Assembly (NCBI RefSeq): GCF_000717875.1
Contig: NZ_JOCT01000018.1
Location: forward strand, 1 to 64,000
Length of the DNA: 64,000 nucleotides
Origin: Streptomyces sp. NRRL S-455
GTDB lineage: Bacteria > Actinomycetota > Actinomycetes > Streptomycetales > Streptomycetaceae
Reading direction: 5' to 3'
Part shown: positions 35,874 to 51,580 of the stretch, piece after piece
Layout of the letters: every line of letters starts with the position of its first letter
Numbering within the stretch: position 1 is the first letter of the stretch
Made by a program: the position numbers and the translations under genes
Notes under the pieces: model-generated
Database searches by the model: none
Told to the model about the DNA's origin: nothing
The model's input: only the letters and a program-made list of their open reading frames with translations

Positions 35874-38072
35874 ATGGGCGACAAGGCACAGACACACCCC
35901 GGAGCCGCCGGCAGGGCACAGGCGGCCGACCACCCCCAGTCCGTACGGAATGTGGTGCTGGTCGGCCACTCCGGATCGGGCAAGACCACGCTGGTGGAAG
36001 CCCTCGCGCTGACGGCGGGGGCGGTGAACCGGGCGGGCCGCGTGGAGGACGGCGGCACCGTCTCCGACTACGACGAGATCGAGCACCGGCAGCAACGCTC
36101 GGTGCAGCTCTCCCTGGTGCCCGTCGAATGGGACGGCATCAAGGTCAACCTTCTCGACACCCCCGGCTACGCCGACTTCGTAGGGGAGCTCAGGGCCGGT
36201 CTGCGGGCGGCGGACGCTGCCCTCTTCGTCGTCTCGGCCTCGGACGGCGTGGACGGCTCCACCCGCATGGTGTGGGAGGAGTGCGCGGCCGTGGGCATGC
36301 CACGGGCCATCGTCGTCACGCACCTCGAAGCGGCACGCGCGGACTTCGAGGAGATGACACGGGTGTGCGCCGAGGCCTTCGGCGCGGACGACCCCGACGC
36401 GGTCCTGCCGCTCTACCTGCCCCTGCACGGCCCCCAGGCCCCGGACGGGCACGCGCCGGTGACCGGCCTGATCGGCCTGCTGTCGCAGAAGCTGTTCGAC
36501 TACTCGACGGGCGAGCGCAAGGAGTCCGAGCCGGGCGAGGACCAGCTGCCGGTGATCGAGGAGGCCCGCAACCGGCTCATCGAGGGGATCATCTCGGAGA
36601 GTGAGGACGAGACCCTCATGGACCGCTACCTGGGCGGGGAGCCGGTCGACGTCAAGACGCTGATCGACGACCTGGAGCGCGCCGTCGCACGCGGGGCGTT
36701 CTTCCCCGTCCTGGCCGCCGCCCCCGCGGCCGAGGGCTCCCGGCAGGGGCTCGGCACGGTGGAACTGCTGGAGCTGATCACGCGGGGTTTCCCGACCCCG
36801 CTGGAGCACGAGACGGTGCGGGTCACCACCATCGACGGCAAGCCGAGGGAGCTCAAGCCGTGCGACCCCGACGCCCCGCTGGTCGCCGAGGTCGTGAAGA
36901 CGTCCTCGGACCCGTACGTCGGCCGGCTGTCCCTGATCCGCGTTTTCTCCGGCACTCTGCGCGCCGACCAGACGGTCCACGTCTCCGGGCACGGCCTGGC
37001 CGACCGCGGGCACGAGGACCACGACGTCGACGAGCGGATCGGCGCCCTGTCCACGCCGTTCGGCAAACAGCAGCGCCCGGTGTCGCACGTCATCGCGGGC
37101 GACCTCGCGTGCGTGGCCAAACTGAGCCGCGCCGAGACCGGGGACACCCTGTCCGCCAAGGACGACCCGCTGCTCATGGAGCCCTGGCAGATGCCCGACC
37201 CGCTGCTGCCGCTGGCCATCCAGGCACACAGCAAACCGGACGAGGACCGGCTCTCCCAGGGCCTGGCCCGGCTGGTGGCCGAGGACCCGACGATGCGGCT
37301 CGAACAGAACCAGGACACGCATCAGGTGGTCCTGTGGTGCCTGGGCGAGGCGCACGCGGACGTCGCCCTGGAGCGGCTGCGCAGCCGGTACGGCGTCCAG
37401 GTCGATGTCGTCCCGCACCGGGTCTCCCTGCGTGAGACGTTCGCGAGCAAGTCGGCCGGGCGCGGCCGGCACGTCAAACAGTCCGGCGGGCACGGCCAGT
37501 TCGCCATCTGCGAGATCGAGGTCGAGCCGCTGCCCGGTGGTTCGGGCATCGAGTTCGTGGACAAGGTCGTCGGCGGCGCGGTGCCGCGGCAGTTCATCCC
37601 GTCGGTGGAGAAGGGCGTACGGGCCCAGGCCGCCAAGGGAGTCGCCGCCGGGCATCCGCTCATCGACGTACGTGTGACGCTGCTCGACGGCAAGGCGCAC
37701 TCGGTGGACTCCTCCGACGCCGCGTTCCAGACGGCCGGCGCGCTCGCGCTGCGGGAGGCCGCGGCGGACGCGAAGATCCATCTGCTGGAGCCGGTGGCCG
37801 AGGTGTCGGTACTGATCGGCGACGAGTTCGTGGGTGCCGTGATGAGCGATCTGTCGGGGCGCCGCGGCCGGGTGCTCGGCACCGAACAGACGCCCGGCGG
37901 CCGCACCCTGATCCGGGCCGAGGTGCCCGAGATCGAGATCGGCCGCTATGCGATCGACCTGCGGTCGATGGCGCACGGCACGGCCCGTTTCAGCCGCCGC
38001 TACGCGCGGCACGAGCCGATGCCGCCGCAGGTCGCGGAAAGGGTGCGCGAGGAGGCGCGCGCGGCCTCGTAA
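35874..38072 (+). CDS. EF-G2-like translational GTPase with degenerate GTPase motifs
   Basis: 732 residues with the five-domain layout of EF-G. G1 is GHSGSGKTTL (residue ~32) and G3 is DTPGYADF, where canonical EF-G has DTPGH with the catalytic His. At the G4 position, IVVTHLEAARADF replaces the NKMD-type guanine-specificity motif. Domain IV has VKQSGGHGQFA, and domain V looks normal. Such EF-G2 paralogues are not the essential translocase; their role is unclear. GTP specificity is doubtful from the motifs alone. The start has gggaggcagg upstream. It is transcribed opposite to its neighbours and interrupts the pgsA-HIT-thrS order known from Mycobacterium. Confidence 0.88.
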   Translation: MGDKAQTHPGAAGRAQAADHPQSVRNVVLVGHSGSGKTTLVEALALTAGAVNRAGRVEDGGTVSDYDEIEHRQQRSVQLSLVPVEWDGIKVNLLDTPGYADFVGELRAGLRAADAALFVVSASDGVDGSTRMVWEECAAVGMPRAIVVTHLEAARADFEEMTRVCAEAFGADDPDAVLPLYLPLHGPQAPDGHAPVTGLIGLLSQKLFDYSTGERKESEPGEDQLPVIEEARNRLIEGIISESEDETLMDRYLGGEPVDVKTLIDDLERAVARGAFFPVLAAAPAAEGSRQGLGTVELLELITRGFPTPLEHETVRVTTIDGKPRELKPCDPDAPLVAEVVKTSSDPYVGRLSLIRVFSGTLRADQTVHVSGHGLADRGHEDHDVDERIGALSTPFGKQQRPVSHVIAGDLACVAKLSRAETGDTLSAKDDPLLMEPWQMPDPLLPLAIQAHSKPDEDRLSQGLARLVAEDPTMRLEQNQDTHQVVLWCLGEAHADVALERLRSRYGVQVDVVPHRVSLRETFASKSAGRGRHVKQSGGHGQFAICEIEVEPLPGGSGIEFVDKVVGGAVPRQFIPSVEKGVRAQAAKGVAAGHPLIDVRVTLLDGKAHSVDSSDAAFQTAGALALREAAADAKIHLLEPVAEVSVLIGDEFVGAVMSDLSGRRGRVLGTEQTPGGRTLIRAEVPEIEIGRYAIDLRSMAHGTARFSRRYARHEPMPPQVAERVREEARAAS

Positions 38073-46160: not shown

Positions 46161-48527
46161 ATGACGCACCTTCCGCCCCCGGCCGAGGAGTTGCGGCTCC
46201 TCGATGCCGAACTCTGGCAACTGGAGGCCCGGCGCACCCAGTTGCTGGCCCGTCGCGCCTGGCTGGTCGCGGCCCTGCGCCAGACGCAGCCGCCGCCGCA
46301 GACGCCGCCCGCGGCACCGCCGCGCCCGGAGACCACCGCGCCCAGCGTGCAGAACGTGCTCCTGGTGCTCGGCGGTGTCCTGCTCACTCTCGCGGCGGCG
46401 GTGTTCACGCTGGTCAGTTGGGGGCACCTGGGGATCGCGGGGCGGGCGCTGGCGCTCGGCGCGGTCACGGTGGCCACGCTCGCCGCACCGGTGGTGCTGC
46501 TGAAGCGGGGGCTGCGTTCGACCGCCGAGTCGGTGGCGGGGCTCGGGCTGGCGCTGACCGTCCTGGATGCCTACGCACTGCACGCGGCGGCCTTCGCCGG
46601 GGCGGCCGGCACCGGGTACGCGGCGGTCGCGTCAGCGGTGCTGGCCGCGGTCTGGTCGGCGTACGGTCTGCTGCCCGCCACGGCCGCGCTCCGGCTGCCC
46701 CTCCCCTGCGCCGTGGCGGCGGCACAGTTCCCGCTGCCGCTGTGTGCCCTGGCTGTCGACGCGGGTCCGTACACGGTCACGGCCGCCCTGCTGGTGACGG
46801 CCGGTTTCGACGCCGCGGTGGCGTTGCGCGTCATGAGCAGGTCCGTACGGATCACCGCCATGGCCGGTGCGTACGCCGTGGGCGGCTGCGGCGTCCTGGC
46901 CGCGGCGTGGCTCTCCCTGGCGGCCGACGGTCCGGCCGGGTCCGCTCGTGCCGGAGCCCTCCTCCTTCTCGCCGCGGTGATCGCACTGGGCGCCGCCTGG
47001 CGCAGCCCGGGTGACCACCACCCCCTGGGCCTCGCGGTGGCCTCGGGGCTGCTCACGGTCGGCGCGCTCGGCGGCCTGGCCCGCTCCTGGACGCCGGAGA
47101 TGTGGACGGTTCCGGGGTATCTGCTCTGCGGGATCGCGCTGTTGGCGGCGCTGCGGGCCGGGTGGCTGCCGGACCCGGTGCGGATGGGCTTCGCCTGGGC
47201 CTCCGGTGTCGTGCAGGCGCTGGCCGTGCTGTGGACCCTGCCCGTGGTCGCCGTGGTGGTGCTGGGGCCGGCCGGCTGGCTGGGCCGGGTGTGGAGCGGT
47301 ACGCCGGTGGACGCGCGTGCCGCGGTGACCGTCGAAGCCCCCTGGCCGCCCGACGCGTTGGGCGCCCCTGTCGTCCTGATGGCCGTCGCGGTGGTTCTCG
47401 CTCTGGCCGTCCGTGCGGAGAAGTGGCGTGCGCGGGCGCGGACCGGCGCGCTCGGCCTGGGAGCGGCCACGGCGCTGATCCTCCCGGCGGTCCTCGCGGT
47501 CCCGTACGTCGCGGGCCTGCTGGTCCTGGGGGTGCTGACAGCGGCTGCCCTGTACCTGTGCCGGACGGTGGTGTCCGCCGCACGGACCACCGCCCTCGTC
47601 CTCGCCCTGGTCACCTCCGTCTGTCTCACCCTGGTGTCGCTCGCCTCCCAGAGCGCGACCCTCGTGGTGCTGTCCGTGCTGACGGCACTGTTCGCGGCGG
47701 CCTCGTGGCCGGCGGGCGTCGCACCGGTGACGGCTCCGGCCGCCCTCGGGTACGCCGCCGTCCTGGCCTCGGCGACGGGCGCCGCCGCGGACTGGCCGCC
47801 GGCCCGTGTCGCCCTGCTGGTCCTGGCCGTTTCCGTGGCCGCCGCCCTGTTCGCGGCACGCCTCGACGGGTCCCGGGCGACCGTGCCGGTCGAGGTCGTG
47901 GGAGCCGCCACCGGCCTGCTCGCCGTGGGCCTCGCCGTCACGGACCCTCCGCTGCTCGCCCTGGTGCTCGCCCTGTGCGGAGTGATCGCCGCGGGCACGG
48001 CGCTGCGTCCGGGGCGTCGCCGGGCCGGTTACGTGGCCACCGCCCTGTTCGTGCTGGCCGCCTGGGTACGCCTGGCCGCCTGGGAGGTCGCCACGCCGGA
48101 GGCGTACACGCTCCCGGTCACCGTTCCGGCGCTGCTGGTCGGCGCCCTGCGCCGGCGGCGGGACCCGCAGGCCTCCTCCTGGGCGGCTTACGGTCCCGGG
48201 CTCGCGGCCACCCTCACGCCGAGTCTCGTCGCGGCCTGGGGCGACCCGGGCTGGACAAGGCCGCTGCTGCTGGGCACGGCCGCACTGCTGGTGACCCTGC
48301 TGGGAGCCCGTCATCGCCTCCAGGCGCCGCTGGCGCTCGGCGGCTCGGTGCTGGCCCTGGTCACACTGCACGAACTCGCCCCGTATATCGCGCAGGTGAC
48401 CGGGGCACTCCCCCGCTGGGCACCTCCCGCCCTCGCCGGACTCCTGCTGCTCGCGCTCGGGGCGACGTACGAGCAGCGGATCCGGGACGTCCGGCGGGTG
48501 CGGGAGGTCCTGGGGAGGATGAACTAG
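46161..48527 (+). CDS. Large polytopic membrane protein of unknown function
   Basis: 788 residues. An N-terminal helical and Pro-rich cytoplasmic segment (LRLLDAELWQLEARRTQLLA, then PPPQTPPAAPP) is followed from about residue 65 by some 20 hydrophobic helices that fill the rest. Architecture resembles the SCO7613-type C-terminal-domain membrane proteins of Streptomyces, but I am not certain of the family. No catalytic motif seen. ATG 46161 has GAGG only 1 nt upstream; an in-frame GTG at 46137 is an alternative. A MITE-like element starts 21 bp after its stop. Confidence 0.75.
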   Translation: MTHLPPPAEELRLLDAELWQLEARRTQLLARRAWLVAALRQTQPPPQTPPAAPPRPETTAPSVQNVLLVLGGVLLTLAAAVFTLVSWGHLGIAGRALALGAVTVATLAAPVVLLKRGLRSTAESVAGLGLALTVLDAYALHAAAFAGAAGTGYAAVASAVLAAVWSAYGLLPATAALRLPLPCAVAAAQFPLPLCALAVDAGPYTVTAALLVTAGFDAAVALRVMSRSVRITAMAGAYAVGGCGVLAAAWLSLAADGPAGSARAGALLLLAAVIALGAAWRSPGDHHPLGLAVASGLLTVGALGGLARSWTPEMWTVPGYLLCGIALLAALRAGWLPDPVRMGFAWASGVVQALAVLWTLPVVAVVVLGPAGWLGRVWSGTPVDARAAVTVEAPWPPDALGAPVVLMAVAVVLALAVRAEKWRARARTGALGLGAATALILPAVLAVPYVAGLLVLGVLTAAALYLCRTVVSAARTTALVLALVTSVCLTLVSLASQSATLVVLSVLTALFAAASWPAGVAPVTAPAALGYAAVLASATGAAADWPPARVALLVLAVSVAAALFAARLDGSRATVPVEVVGAATGLLAVGLAVTDPPLLALVLALCGVIAAGTALRPGRRRAGYVATALFVLAAWVRLAAWEVATPEAYTLPVTVPALLVGALRRRRDPQASSWAAYGPGLAATLTPSLVAAWGDPGWTRPLLLGTAALLVTLLGARHRLQAPLALGGSVLALVTLHELAPYIAQVTGALPRWAPPALAGLLLLALGATYEQRIRDVRRVREVLGRMN

Positions 48528-48548
48528 TGCCGCGGCACCAGCCGTCGG

Positions 48549-48729
48549 CTAGGGGGTGTCCGCAATGTCGCGTCGTCCGCCCGGAGGGCGGGCCCCGCGG
48601 CGTCCGGTGCGTGCTCTCGGCGTGCCGGGCGGACGCCCGCGTACTGGTTGTACTCGGGTGTTCGCCCGGTGCGGCGAGAGTGCGTGCCGGGCGTCGCGGG
48701 GCAGGCGGGACTTTGCGGACACCCCCTAG
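48549..48729. mobile_element. 181-bp near-palindromic MITE-like element
   Basis: The ends are perfect 17-bp inverted repeats: ctagggggtgtccgcaa (48549-48565) and its complement (48713-48729). Complementarity continues inward through most of both arms to a 7-nt loop at 48644-48650; the main break is a roughly 16-nt insertion in the left arm (about 48577-48592). There is no reading frame. The outer bases are ctag on both sides. The TAG stop of the lyase gene (48726-48728) lies in the right end. Size, terminal repeats and ctag ends fit a non-autonomous element moved by an IS5-family transposase; no transposase gene is in the window. Confidence 0.75.
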
Positions 48730-51467
48730 GGCATCTTGTCTCCGACCAGCGCCAGGTTCTGGATGGCGGCCAGCCCGTACAGCGCCGTGGCGTTGGTGGA
48801 GACCCAGGCCGCCTCGCTGCCCGCCACCAGAGCGGTCGGGCCCTCGATCTTCTTCGTCGACCAGTCGGTGCTCTCCTTGTAGTCCCAGGTGTCGGCGCTG
48901 TTGTAGAACTGCCGCCACGCCCGGGCGGCCAGCTTCTCGTCGCCCGTCCGGGCAGCCGCGTAGGCGTCCTGCCGGGAGTGGCCCTGGAAGAGGAGCAGGC
49001 TGCCGAAGTCGGAGCCGTAGCGGGCCTTCTGCTCGGCCTTGGTGGCGTTGTAGTAGCGGCAGTAGTCGAGCCACGCCTCCTTGAACTTCGGCATGTCGAT
49101 CTGGTCGATGAGTTCCGCGCACATCTCGACCAGGCCGAACATCGCCGACAGGTGCGAGACCCCGACCACCGGCTTGTCCGCGATGGCGAACTTCCCGGTG
49201 TCCAGGTCGTACAGCCCGTTGCCCTGGACGAAGCCGTTGGGCTGGGCGGCGATGGTCTCCATGGTCGACAGGACCCTGGCCCTGGCCTTCTCCCACTTGG
49301 GGCCGCGCCGTTCCCACTCGGTGAGCCAGGCGGAGACCAGACCGCTCCAGTCGGTGCCGAAGCCGACGGACAGGGCGTTGCGGTCGGGCGTGTAGGGCTC
49401 GGTGCGGATCTTGCGGATGGGGTCGAGGACGAGGAACGTCTCGTCGGAGTCGACGTTGGCGTGCATGAGGTCGCCGACCCGTTCGTCCGCCGTGAGGAAG
49501 TAGTAGTAGCGCCGGTAGGTGGTGTTGGCGATGCGCTGCTGCTTGGCGCTGTCGGCGAAGTGCTGGACGCCGTGCCGGGTGCCGAGGCCCGCCCACTTGC
49601 CGAGGTGGTAGACGTCGACCTCGCCGGTGTGCCGGGTCATGGCCTCGGCGAACCGGAAGATGTCGGCGCGGCCGGAGCGCATGTACGCGAACCAGAGCCA
49701 CAGGTCCGGCGAGAGTTCGGAGTTGTCCCAGGCGTAGCCGCCGACGTCGTAGCACCACTGGTGACGGCTGGGGTCGTAGCTGTGCATGATGTCGCCGTAG
49801 TCCCAGAAGCCGTACCAACGGCGCTGCTCCACCTGGTCCTTGTAGTAGGTGAAGAGGAAGTCGAGGTGGTCCTCGATCTTCGCCTTGGCGGCGGTGGAGC
49901 GGTCGGGCTCGGAGAACAGCTTGCCGAAGACGCCCGCCTTGATGAGCTGCTTGGGCGGGGCGGCGAGCTGCGGCGGGGTGCGTACGGCCTCGACCTGCTC
50001 GGCCATCCGCTCGGCGCTCGGTGTGGACTCGTGGGCCCAGAAGAGGAGTTCGCTGGTGCGGGCGATGCCGTAGGGGGTGCCGAAGCCGGGCTCGTAGTCC
50101 TCGTAGGTGATGTTGAGGCCTTCGAGCTGCTCGGGATAGGTGTCCTGGCCCATGCCGTCGTGGTAGAAGCGCAGATCCATGGGCTGCGCCTCCGGCGACC
50201 AGAGCCAGAGCGTGATCTCGGCGGTGTCGGTCTGGGCGTCGCGGATGTCGAGCTGGGCGGGGAACTTCTCCCAGAAGTCCCTGAGGCCGAAGGCGAATCC
50301 GCCGCTCGCGCCGCCGACGTACCCGAAGCCGCTGGCTCTCCGGCCGCCGCCCGCGCCGATCCAGCCGTGGCCCTTCTTGGTGCGCTTGCGGACGGTGAAG
50401 CCGTCGGCGGACAGCTGGGAGAGGGTGTAGTCGCCCCACTCGGGGATGTACTGGAGGCGGGTGGTGACGCGCTGGTCCCAGGTCGACGGGTCGGGCAGCT
50501 TCCTGCCCTCGAACTGGGCCGTGCGCACGGCCGCGCCCGGGTCGCGGCGCAGGCCGGTGATGCCCTTGACGGCCTCGCGGAGCAGGCCGGTGCCGTCGCC
50601 GCCGATGCGGATGTGCCGGTCGTAGGCCGCGTCACGCATCGGCACCTGGAAGCGCACGCCGAGCCCGCGGATGAAGTCGCCGCTCGCCTTTCCGGGCTCC
50701 TGGGTGCCGTCGAAGGTGAGGGTGTGGACCATGCGGAACGACTCGGCGCCCGCGTAGAAGTAGAGCCGGATCGAGAAGGGCAGCCAGCTGCGGCCGCCCT
50801 TGCGGTGCTTGCCGTCGATGCGGACGACCGCGCGGACCGGGCCCTCCTGCTCGACCTCGACCTTGGAGACGGCGCCGTCGAAGCGCTCGGTCTTGACCGC
50901 GCCCTGGTCCTCGTCCTCGATCTCCGGCTGGCGGATCAGCACCAGCCGGCCATTCCTGGCGATCTCCGTCGAGCCCCGGGTGACCGACTTGACGATCGTG
51001 GAGCCGGACTTGCCGATCCTCACGGTGATGACGCCGGTCGAGACGTCGATGGTGCCGCCGCTCTTGTCGACGGTGACCTTCTTCTCGGGGGCGGCGGGCG
51101 TCCCGGCCTTCAGGGTGAGCTTGCCGGTGCCCGAACCGACCGCGTGCGCGGTCCACTTGAGGGAGCCGTCGGGCCAGTAGCCGATCGGCCACGACTGCAC
51201 GGGTACGGCCTTGCCGTCCGCGTCCGTCAGCGCGAAGGTCTGGTCCTTCTGGTAGGCGCCCTTCGGCCAGGGCACGCCGACGGTGGAGCCGGGGGCCGCG
51301 CCGAGGCCGCCGTCCTCCAGCCAGTCCAGGATCACCGGGTCGGGGTCGGCGTTCTCGGCCACGGGTGCGGCCTGCGCGTCCTGCGCTCCCAGCGCCCAGC
51401 TGAACTGGGCGGCGGCTCCGGCGACGGCGGCCGCCTTCAGGAGGGACCTGCGAGGGATGGGGGACAT
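48726..51467 (-). CDS. Tat-exported rhamnogalacturonan-lyase-like protein (YetA/PcRGLX type)
   Basis: 913 residues. A twin-arginine signal (PRRSLLKAAAVAGAAAQFSW) with a likely AQA cleavage at residues ~33-35 is followed by beta-rich N-terminal domains (GSTVGVPWPKGAYQKDQTF, SWPIGYWPDGSLKWTAHA) and a C-terminal alpha-toroid-like region (RWYGFWDYGDIMHSYD, WLWFAYMRSGRADIFRFAEA, YHLGKWAGLGTRHGVQHFAD). This fits the large YetA/exo-rhamnogalacturonan lyase family acting on plant pectin fragments. ATG 51467 has AAAGG upstream. Its stop codon sits inside the MITE-like element. It is downstream of an ABC sugar importer and a YesL-like protein. The exact substrate is inferred. Confidence 0.68.
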   Translation of the reverse strand: MSPIPRRSLLKAAAVAGAAAQFSWALGAQDAQAAPVAENADPDPVILDWLEDGGLGAAPGSTVGVPWPKGAYQKDQTFALTDADGKAVPVQSWPIGYWPDGSLKWTAHAVGSGTGKLTLKAGTPAAPEKKVTVDKSGGTIDVSTGVITVRIGKSGSTIVKSVTRGSTEIARNGRLVLIRQPEIEDEDQGAVKTERFDGAVSKVEVEQEGPVRAVVRIDGKHRKGGRSWLPFSIRLYFYAGAESFRMVHTLTFDGTQEPGKASGDFIRGLGVRFQVPMRDAAYDRHIRIGGDGTGLLREAVKGITGLRRDPGAAVRTAQFEGRKLPDPSTWDQRVTTRLQYIPEWGDYTLSQLSADGFTVRKRTKKGHGWIGAGGGRRASGFGYVGGASGGFAFGLRDFWEKFPAQLDIRDAQTDTAEITLWLWSPEAQPMDLRFYHDGMGQDTYPEQLEGLNITYEDYEPGFGTPYGIARTSELLFWAHESTPSAERMAEQVEAVRTPPQLAAPPKQLIKAGVFGKLFSEPDRSTAAKAKIEDHLDFLFTYYKDQVEQRRWYGFWDYGDIMHSYDPSRHQWCYDVGGYAWDNSELSPDLWLWFAYMRSGRADIFRFAEAMTRHTGEVDVYHLGKWAGLGTRHGVQHFADSAKQQRIANTTYRRYYYFLTADERVGDLMHANVDSDETFLVLDPIRKIRTEPYTPDRNALSVGFGTDWSGLVSAWLTEWERRGPKWEKARARVLSTMETIAAQPNGFVQGNGLYDLDTGKFAIADKPVVGVSHLSAMFGLVEMCAELIDQIDMPKFKEAWLDYCRYYNATKAEQKARYGSDFGSLLLFQGHSRQDAYAAARTGDEKLAARAWRQFYNSADTWDYKESTDWSTKKIEGPTALVAGSEAAWVSTNATALYGLAAIQNLALVGDKMP

Positions 51468-51580
51468 TGAGAATGCTGCCTTTCCTTGTCCGTGCGGGAA
51501 GCGATTCCGTGCGCTGATCAGGGCATGACAGAGAGAGGTGCGGCGTCCGGGGCGCCGACCTGGAATGAGGGCACCACCGG

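What the first reader, a model, noticed from the sequence alone, without database searches (positions are those of the whole stretch)
48549..48729. 181-bp near-palindromic MITE-like element ending on a stop codon
The ends are perfect 17-bp inverted repeats with ctag at both tips, and most of the two arms are complementary around a 7-nt loop. The right tip supplies the TAG stop of the lyase gene, and the left tip is 21 bp past the membrane-protein stop. It may be a non-autonomous transposon that has become a two-way terminator and has trimmed or fixed the C-terminus of the lyase. I link it to IS5-type elements only from the ctag ends.
Basis: partly seen in the sequence, partly recalled or inferred. 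Interest (0 to 1): 0.72.

Follow-up and report, generated by a model that had tools for sequence, protein, structure and literature searches.

The report
IS5-type mini-transposon at a stop codon
A short DNA parasite without genes of its own sits exactly at the stop signal of a Streptomyces gene without changing the protein, and belongs to a family whose members share one folded core but carry different ends.

Summary
In detail: 181 bp, perfect 17-bp inverted ends, CTAG at both tips, very stable hairpin. It is a mobile MITE. Relatives occur in this genome and in 17 of 36 others of the genus, none of 24 outside. An 891-bp IS5-family element with nearly the same ends is the likely transposase source. 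A 97%-identical relative has the empty site with one CTAG, already the lyase stop; the lyase ends ...MP* in 24 of 30 loci. Nothing was trimmed: element ends plus duplicated TA rebuild CTAG on both sides. Of 73 insertion sites with exact CTA|TAG flanks, 49 scored as stop codons, against 12 of 41 background CTAGs. I read it as a strand-specific, RNA-like hairpin passed between IS-type ends. Its function is untested, termination included. Eight full-text searches of an open-access library, six naming Streptomyces, showed no paper on such a family.

The parts
48549..48729 (+). MITE with CTAG at both tips (type A ends); 48552-48726 (175 bp) if the duplicated target is TA
48549..48565 (+). left perfect 17-bp terminal repeat CTAGGGGGTGTCCGCAA; the first 21 bases match the end of the 891-bp IS5-family element L230 except two variable bases and one mismatch
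48713..48729 (-). right perfect 17-bp terminal repeat
48577..48591 (+). side hairpin CCGCCC-GGA-GGGCGG next to the core; a like hairpin is seen in the printed elements of types A, B, C, G and H, not D, E and F
48597..48697 (+). 101-nt core hairpin (sense strand = + strand here) shared by elements with other ends
48726..48729 (-). right CTAG tip = stop codon (TAG) of the lyase gene; the same CTAG is present in the empty site
48726..51473 (-). PcRGLX-type lyase, 915 aa as scanned, C-terminus ...GDKMP*
46164..48527 (+). large membrane protein (no Pfam match at E<=0.001); start not determined; stop TAG at 48525-48527 lies in CTAG 48524-48527
48524..48541 (.). CTA-GTGCCGCGGCAC-CAG: probable deletion remnant of a type F element inserted at the membrane gene's stop; absent in G026
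   Evidence: inference from type F ends

Best explanation
The feature is a MITE moved by an IS5-family transposase. SHOWN: it has many dispersed relatives, an empty site in a close relative, and an IS with nearly the same ends elsewhere in the genus. It sits at a CTAG that already was the lyase stop. The element starts with G and ends with C, so CTA-G...C-TAG rebuilds CTAG at both junctions and leaves the stop of either flanking gene intact. Sites at stop codons are over-represented among sites with exact CTA|TAG flanks. A 101-nt core of constant length is shared by elements with six other sets of ends (seven in all); its pairs covary and its wobbles are G.U on one strand. INFERRED: movement in trans by a related IS5 element, since none with these ends was found in this genome. 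The core is maintained as a single-strand hairpin, most likely in RNA at the 3' end of the gene it lands behind, where it would affect 3'-end processing or stability in the manner reported for ERIC and Correia elements. Cores change ends by recombination between elements.
For: Copies: 33 BLAST matches in the own genome at E<=0.01, self and partial pieces included; 18 of 37 genus genomes counting the own one, 0 of 24 outside; two G017 copies 99% alike. Empty site in G026, 97% identical. IS: L230 and L229, 891 bp, ends TAGGCCGTGTCCGCAAAGTC (TGGGCC... in L229), both with PF13340 and PF01609; L229's two frames also pass the NF033580 cut-off. Second pair: four 173-bp type B MITEs and 942-bp elements L413 (Pfam and NCBIfam) and L375 (Pfam only). 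Stop docking: 49 of 73 versus 12 of 41 background, Fisher p 0.00017. Core: 101 nt in 60 of 73 distinct cores. Covariation: 109 double-change cells versus 31.1 (sd 3.8) shuffled, 13-20 when slid. Nine G.U-majority pairs, no A.C-majority pair. The core-oriented strand folds better in 47 of 47 elements folded.
Against: No IS with type A ends was found in the window's own genome (8 of its 10 DUF4096 places read), so mobility here is past or depends on an outside source. The duplication could be CTAG or TA. Shared ancestry inflates covariation and strand counts; the column sign tests are p 0.004 and 0.019. Orientation towards the gene whose stop was hit is only 26 to 13, p 0.053, and the window's copy is opposite to the lyase. 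No RNA data were available. The excess at stop codons may be selection against harmful insertions rather than targeting; type A alone gives p 0.053, and with the window's CTAGs (7 of 11 stops) added to the background p is 0.001. Pairs without exact CTA|TAG flanks were dropped before the 73 were counted, for example 29 of 49 type A pairs. In the 20 plasmid records listed, 14 show no annotated feature under the match.
Confidence: 0.88

Rival explanations
1. Two-way terminator: after insertion the hairpin ends transcription of both convergent genes and has been kept for that.
For: Very stable hairpin between two convergent genes.
Against: A paired type A end is in 1 of 30 lyase loci, so not kept here over time. 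The one terminator-like site in 48300-48950 lies at 48834, outside the element. Hairpins this long can also be cut rather than terminate (inference).
Confidence: 0.25
2. The G.U asymmetry is mutational, not selected: C-to-T damage on one strand of an ancestral palindrome, inherited by all cores.
For: The cores are homologous, and from G.U a single transition always returns to a Watson-Crick pair, so persistence alone is weak evidence.
Against: 18 of 48 core pairs changed on both sides, and the core length is mostly constant while the ends differ. New G.U variants exceed A.C ones in Watson-Crick-majority columns, 79 to 8 cells, 20 to 7 columns.
Confidence: 0.35
3. The different ends do not come from swapping; each arose as the terminal repeats co-evolved with diverging IS5 transposases while the core stayed.
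For: A, B, C, D and one of the two G ends read TAGGnnnTGT; partners of A and B are both IS5 family. AU tests do not reject A, F, E or G as clades (p 0.07, 0.12, 0.07, 0.47), and B is one side of a weakly supported branch.
Against: Cores of A and F are as alike (87%) as cores within A (87%). The core tree needs 10 label changes for 7 end types, least possible 6, but it rests on 101 columns and many forks are unresolved. Two elements in G304, L433 and L434, carry an E end and an F end on one core.
Confidence: 0.35
4. It is not mobile but a conserved structured RNA or REP-like regulatory element of this locus.
For: Structure and covariation.
Against: Empty site in a 97%-identical relative, dispersed near-identical copies, CTAG duplication, IS with nearly the same ends; no Rfam match at E<=1.
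Confidence: 0.02

Closest known systems
IS5-family insertion sequences of the NF033580 (transpos_IS5_3) type, DUF4096 and DDE in two frames
   Same: Nearly the same ~20-bp terminal repeats and, in L230, the same CTAG flanks; the best candidate helper.
   Different: The MITE has no transposase, and its interior does not align with the interior of L229 or L230 beyond shuffled controls (6 and 96 of 100 shuffles as high).
ERIC / Correia (NEMIS) elements
   Same: Non-autonomous elements under 200 bp, with TA at their termini, whose transcripts fold into long stem-loops; insertion of ERIC at gene 3' ends is said to affect transcript levels, and Correia-bearing transcripts to be cut by RNase III (passages of PMC2229807 and PMC10969869).
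   Different: GC-rich, whereas most of those are said to be A+T-rich; found in Streptomyces and Embleya; often at CTAG stop codons; one core with several sets of ends.
RUP of pneumococcus
   Same: MITE tied to an IS family by shared ends and TA-containing targets (passage of PMC2229807).
   Different: RUP is tied to one IS630 element; here one core appears with seven sets of ends, two of them tied to IS5 elements.

Membership tests
MITE | short, no coding capacity, terminal inverted repeats | tested here: met
   181 bp, 17-bp perfect ends; the ORF list shows only mechanical ORFs running across it
MITE | target-site duplication with an empty site | tested here: met
   G026 empty site with one CTAG; one at each tip in the window. 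TA versus CTAG not resolved
MITE | multiple dispersed copies | tested here: met
MITE | autonomous partner with matching ends | tested here: met
   L229, L230 in two other genomes of the genus; none found in the own genome
MITE | moves when the transposase is supplied | not testable with these tools
   needs a bench assay
IS5-family derived | ends shared with an IS5-family element | tested here: met
IS5-family derived | target duplication of the IS5 type (recalled, from no call: 2-4 bp around TA for the IS427-like group) | tested here: inconclusive
   CTA|TAG in 20 of 49 type A candidate pairs, decayed ones included, TTA|TAG in 3; the latter would fit a TA duplication
ERIC/Correia family | sequence homology to ERIC or Correia | not tested
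   no ERIC or Correia sequence was aligned; only Rfam was scanned, no match. Works-like comparison only
intrinsic terminator | GC hairpin followed by a T-run | tested here: not met
   scan finds none at the element

The most novel reading that the evidence does not exclude
A 101-nt strand-specific hairpin RNA module is itself the unit of selection in Streptomyces. It acquires new terminal repeats by recombination and so rides on many transposases (IS5-type, perhaps also IS630-like for type F). It parks at CTAG stop codons, where insertion is silent for the protein and the hairpin becomes the mRNA's 3' end.
Probability: 0.3. Interest if true: 0.8.

Novelty: new variant of a known kind. Interest (0 to 1): 0.58.

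Why it matters
Bacterial MITEs are usually thought of as shortened relatives of one IS (recalled). Here one folded core is found with seven sets of ends, and with a hybrid of two in one genome. This makes the core rather than the ends the persistent unit, and makes it testable whether a host-neutral RNA hairpin is what survives. The self-restoring CTAG also explains how a transposon can hit stop codons again and again without harming proteins in high-GC genomes.

Tried and rejected
Lyase C-terminus changed by insertion: rejected. The stop is present in the empty site, and the end is ...MP* in 24 of 30 loci (the window counted), MPS* in 5, M* in 1.

IS630 as helper for type A: of 21 IS630-type (DDE_3) loci scanned, 4 (L161, L164, L166, L167) showed paired CTAG ends, with other terminal repeats. 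Rejected for type A; open for type F, whose ends also begin CTAGTG.

Helpers of other types: no autonomous partner was seen for E and F in the listed places (lists were capped) nor for C and D in the loci held. Types G and H were not searched for one.

DUF4096 places of G000, G009, G017 and G026: 64 matches, 30 loci held and scanned, no paired type A ends; one unpaired near-match in L172.

Automatic boundary finding by lenient self-alignment ran into GC-rich flanks and was replaced by a stricter search; several of the 69 pairs listed are chance pairs and were not counted. The 25 non-A elements folded were picked by eye from that list. The symmetric-score pairing stops at the side hairpin in most type A elements, so I rely; its raw totals were G.U 188, A.C 24. 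Eight cores with 11 or more other mismatches were dropped before the test and alignment A2. Over all 60 cores of 101 nt the raw cells are G.U 561, A.C 49; 58 have more G.U, 1 more A.C, 1 equal. In 15 type A copies alone, Watson-Crick-majority core columns gave 11 with G.U and 5 with A.C variants, p 0.21.

The geometry was the minimum-energy fold of the window copy, which favours G.U; searches use plain mirror pairing.

Annotated plasmid copies: I opened 4 of the 20 listed. Two (H1, H5) were listed with a feature under the match, so the agreement of their CDS stops with the tips is not an unbiased sample; H4 has no CDS at a tip and H2 is not annotated there.

Orientation effect: 26 same, 13 opposite, p 0.053, not claimed.

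Papers: eight searches (six name Streptomyces) listed no paper on a Streptomyces MITE family; the library holds open-access papers only. Of PMC10969869 and PMC2229807 I saw passages only; the former's main text has no word 'Streptomyces'.

Full report
What is there. The 181 bp at 48549-48729 are as described: perfect 17-bp ends with CTAG at both tips and a fold of -171.7 kcal/mol, z -16.2. The loop is 5 nt in the predicted fold, and a small side hairpin (48577-48591) sits in the left arm. The right CTAG holds the stop of a PcRGLX-type lyase gene on the minus strand. Rfam has no match at E<=1.

Mobility. BLAST of the element gives 33 matches in its own genome at E<=0.01, self on both strands and partial pieces included. 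Of 61 genomes (own one included), 18 match at 1e-15: 18 of the 37 of the genus and none of the 24 others. 30 plasmid records match, 28 Streptomyces and 2 Embleya, and no phage record does. G017 has at least 13 copies, several at contig ends; two of them are 99% alike. Of 23 paired type A candidates in the loci held, 13 are exactly 181 bp, from several genomes.

Empty site. The lyase 3' end was found in 85 of 199 genus genomes at 1e-60, and 30 loci were fetched. A paired type A end is in 1 of the 30, the window's own. G026, 97% identical, reads AACTAG-CTCTCGG-CTAG-GGCATC where the window has ...CGG-CTAG-element-CTAG-GGCATC. So the target was a CTAG that was already the lyase stop. The lyase ends MP* in 24, MPS* in 5 and M* in 1 of 30 loci, counting the window. 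In G009 and G089 one CTAG is the stop of both convergent genes.

Helper. The end motif GTGTCCGCAAAGTC occurs in 58 of 295 genus genomes; the list of places was capped. Two listed pairs span 879 bp; both belong to an 891-bp element with DUF4096 and DDE_Tnp_1 reading frames in two frames. L229's frames score above the NCBIfam cut-off for IS5 family transposase NF033580; L230 was scanned with Pfam only. Inside the ends, the MITE does not align with either IS beyond shuffled controls. In the own genome no pair of ends at IS spacing was found, and the 8 of its 10 DUF4096 places that were held lack these ends.

Target. CTAG is rare: 12 in 64 kb, Markov expectation 28. I restored the empty site in scripts and scored coding upstream of TAG with a codon model trained on 44,982 codons. 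In G149, 39 type F pairs were found; 36 have CTA|TAG flanks and 33 of these had enough flank. There the CTAG is a stop of a flanking gene in 25 of 33, against 12 of 41 CTAGs in 240 kb of G149 and G009 (Fisher p 0.00014). Over types A (12 of 21), B (4 of 5), E (3 of 4) and F (30 of 43) it is 49 of 73, p 0.00017. Only sites with exact CTA|TAG flanks entered; 29 of 49 type A and 9 of 15 type B pairs were dropped as decayed or doubtful. Type A alone gives p 0.053. In the window itself 7 of 11 CTAGs (the copy made by the element left out) scored as stops; with these pooled into the background p is 0.001. None of the sites classified lay inside a gene; in the background 2 of 41 did. Record annotation: NZ_CP108294 wrbA ends at 1504 with the element at 1501, and NZ_CP108277 has a minus-strand CDS whose stop begins at 1677 with the element ending at 1680; NZ_CP109523 shows no such fit and NZ_CP109481 is not annotated there. 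The first two were listed with a feature under the match, so this is not a fair sample; 14 of the 20 listed records have none, in a gene table that is said to be incomplete. Because the element starts G and ends C, CTA-G and C-TAG rebuild CTAG at both tips.

Shared core, different ends. Elements with homologous cores carry other ends: A GGnnGTGTCCGCAAAGTC; B GGGCCTGTTGCGAAAGTG; C GGGCCTGTTCTGAATTC; D GGGGTGTTTCGAAAGTC; E GGGGCTTCTGATGGATCTCCG; F GTGCCGCGGCAGGCAACG; G ACCTGGCGTCACATTC and CCCTGTCGTCAAATTC. H, GGTCGGTCGGCAATCACC (L018), has the side hairpin only. For example the core hit G032:C2:36862-36963, 90% identical to element positions 49-150, lies between type E ends at 36839 and 36990. 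The E and F end motifs occur in 37 and 25 of 295 genomes. Type B has its own IS5-like partners of 942 bp (L413, L375). Of 73 distinct cores found in the loci held, 60 are exactly 101 nt; end pairs were F/F 18, A/A 16, E/E 7, B/B 6, G/G 5, C/C 2, D/D 1, none on either side 6, and 12 one-sided or mixed. A/D mixtures there may be motif overlap, since A and D ends are alike. L433 is E/F, and L434 shows the same by direct reading. Mean core identity is 87% within A, 87% between A and F, 84% between A and E, but 67% between A and C. The core tree needs 10 label changes for 7 end types (13 if unlabelled rows are counted as a group); its bootstrap had not settled, and single-clade tests for A, F, E and G are not rejected at 0.05. 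So repeated swapping is suggested, not proven.

Structure. On 15 type A copies (13 of 181 bp, 2 of 180) 95.3% of cells pair and 53 cells have changes on both sides, against 16.0 (sd 3.4) shuffled and 2-8 when slid. On 52 of the 60 cores, without gaps and with plain mirror pairing: 91.8% paired, 18 of 48 pairs with double changes, 109 cells against 31.1 (sd 3.8), 13-20 when slid. The strand with the side hairpin on its left folds better than its complement in 22 of 22 type A and 25 of 25 other elements folded; the window copy gives -171.7 against -126.8 with 11 and 0 G.U pairs. Nine pairs are G.U in the majority and none A.C (p 0.004); in Watson-Crick-majority columns G.U variants are 79 cells in 20 columns, A.C 8 in 7 (p 0.019). 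In 15 type A copies alone the like column count is 11 to 5, p 0.21. This points to a single-strand hairpin, RNA or single-stranded DNA, on one strand. Shared descent limits the weight of these counts.

How it works, most likely. An IS5 transposase supplied by a related IS moves the element into CTAG. Survivors lie behind stop codons, either because many harmless CTAGs are there or because such sites are preferred. The core then is transcribed as a 3' hairpin of the gene it follows. Published ERIC and Correia cases (passages read) say that such hairpins can alter or be cut in mRNA. For this family that step is inferred only; the orientation preference is 26 to 13, p 0.053.

Second, older insertion. 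CTAGTGCCGCGGCACCAG at 48524-48541 is absent in G026 and equals the two palindromic tips of a type F element joined, with TA flanks and one change. If so, both convergent genes were hit at their stops. Among 517 loci held it occurs in 6, all of them overlapping stretches of the window's own locus.

Noticed in passing
48524-48541: CTAGTGCCGCGGCACCAG just after the membrane-protein stop, probably the deletion remnant of a type F element; missing in G026.
   Followed up: partly
L139 (G009) and L131 (G089): A single CTAG palindrome is the stop codon of both convergent genes (membrane protein and lyase), with no intergenic base.
   Followed up: partly
L433, L434 (G304): Hybrid elements with a type E end on one side and a type F end on the other of one core.
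   Followed up: partly
L315, L316, L324, L340: Pairs of type B ends 2.1-2.8 kb apart, larger than the 942-bp IS; possible cargo-bearing relatives.
   Followed up: no
L246, L247, L248: Very small elements of 62-71 bp with full type A ends and little core.
   Followed up: no
L521 1501-1680 (NZ_CP108277): A copy with yet another end, CTAGGGCGTGTTTTAGAAGTA.
   Followed up: no
G149: 39 paired type F elements, most of them exactly 163 bp; no autonomous partner with those ends among the places listed.
   Followed up: partly
46164-48527: Large membrane protein without a Pfam match; the end of its gene was recognised beside the lyase in 16 of 30 loci, the window's included.
   Followed up: no
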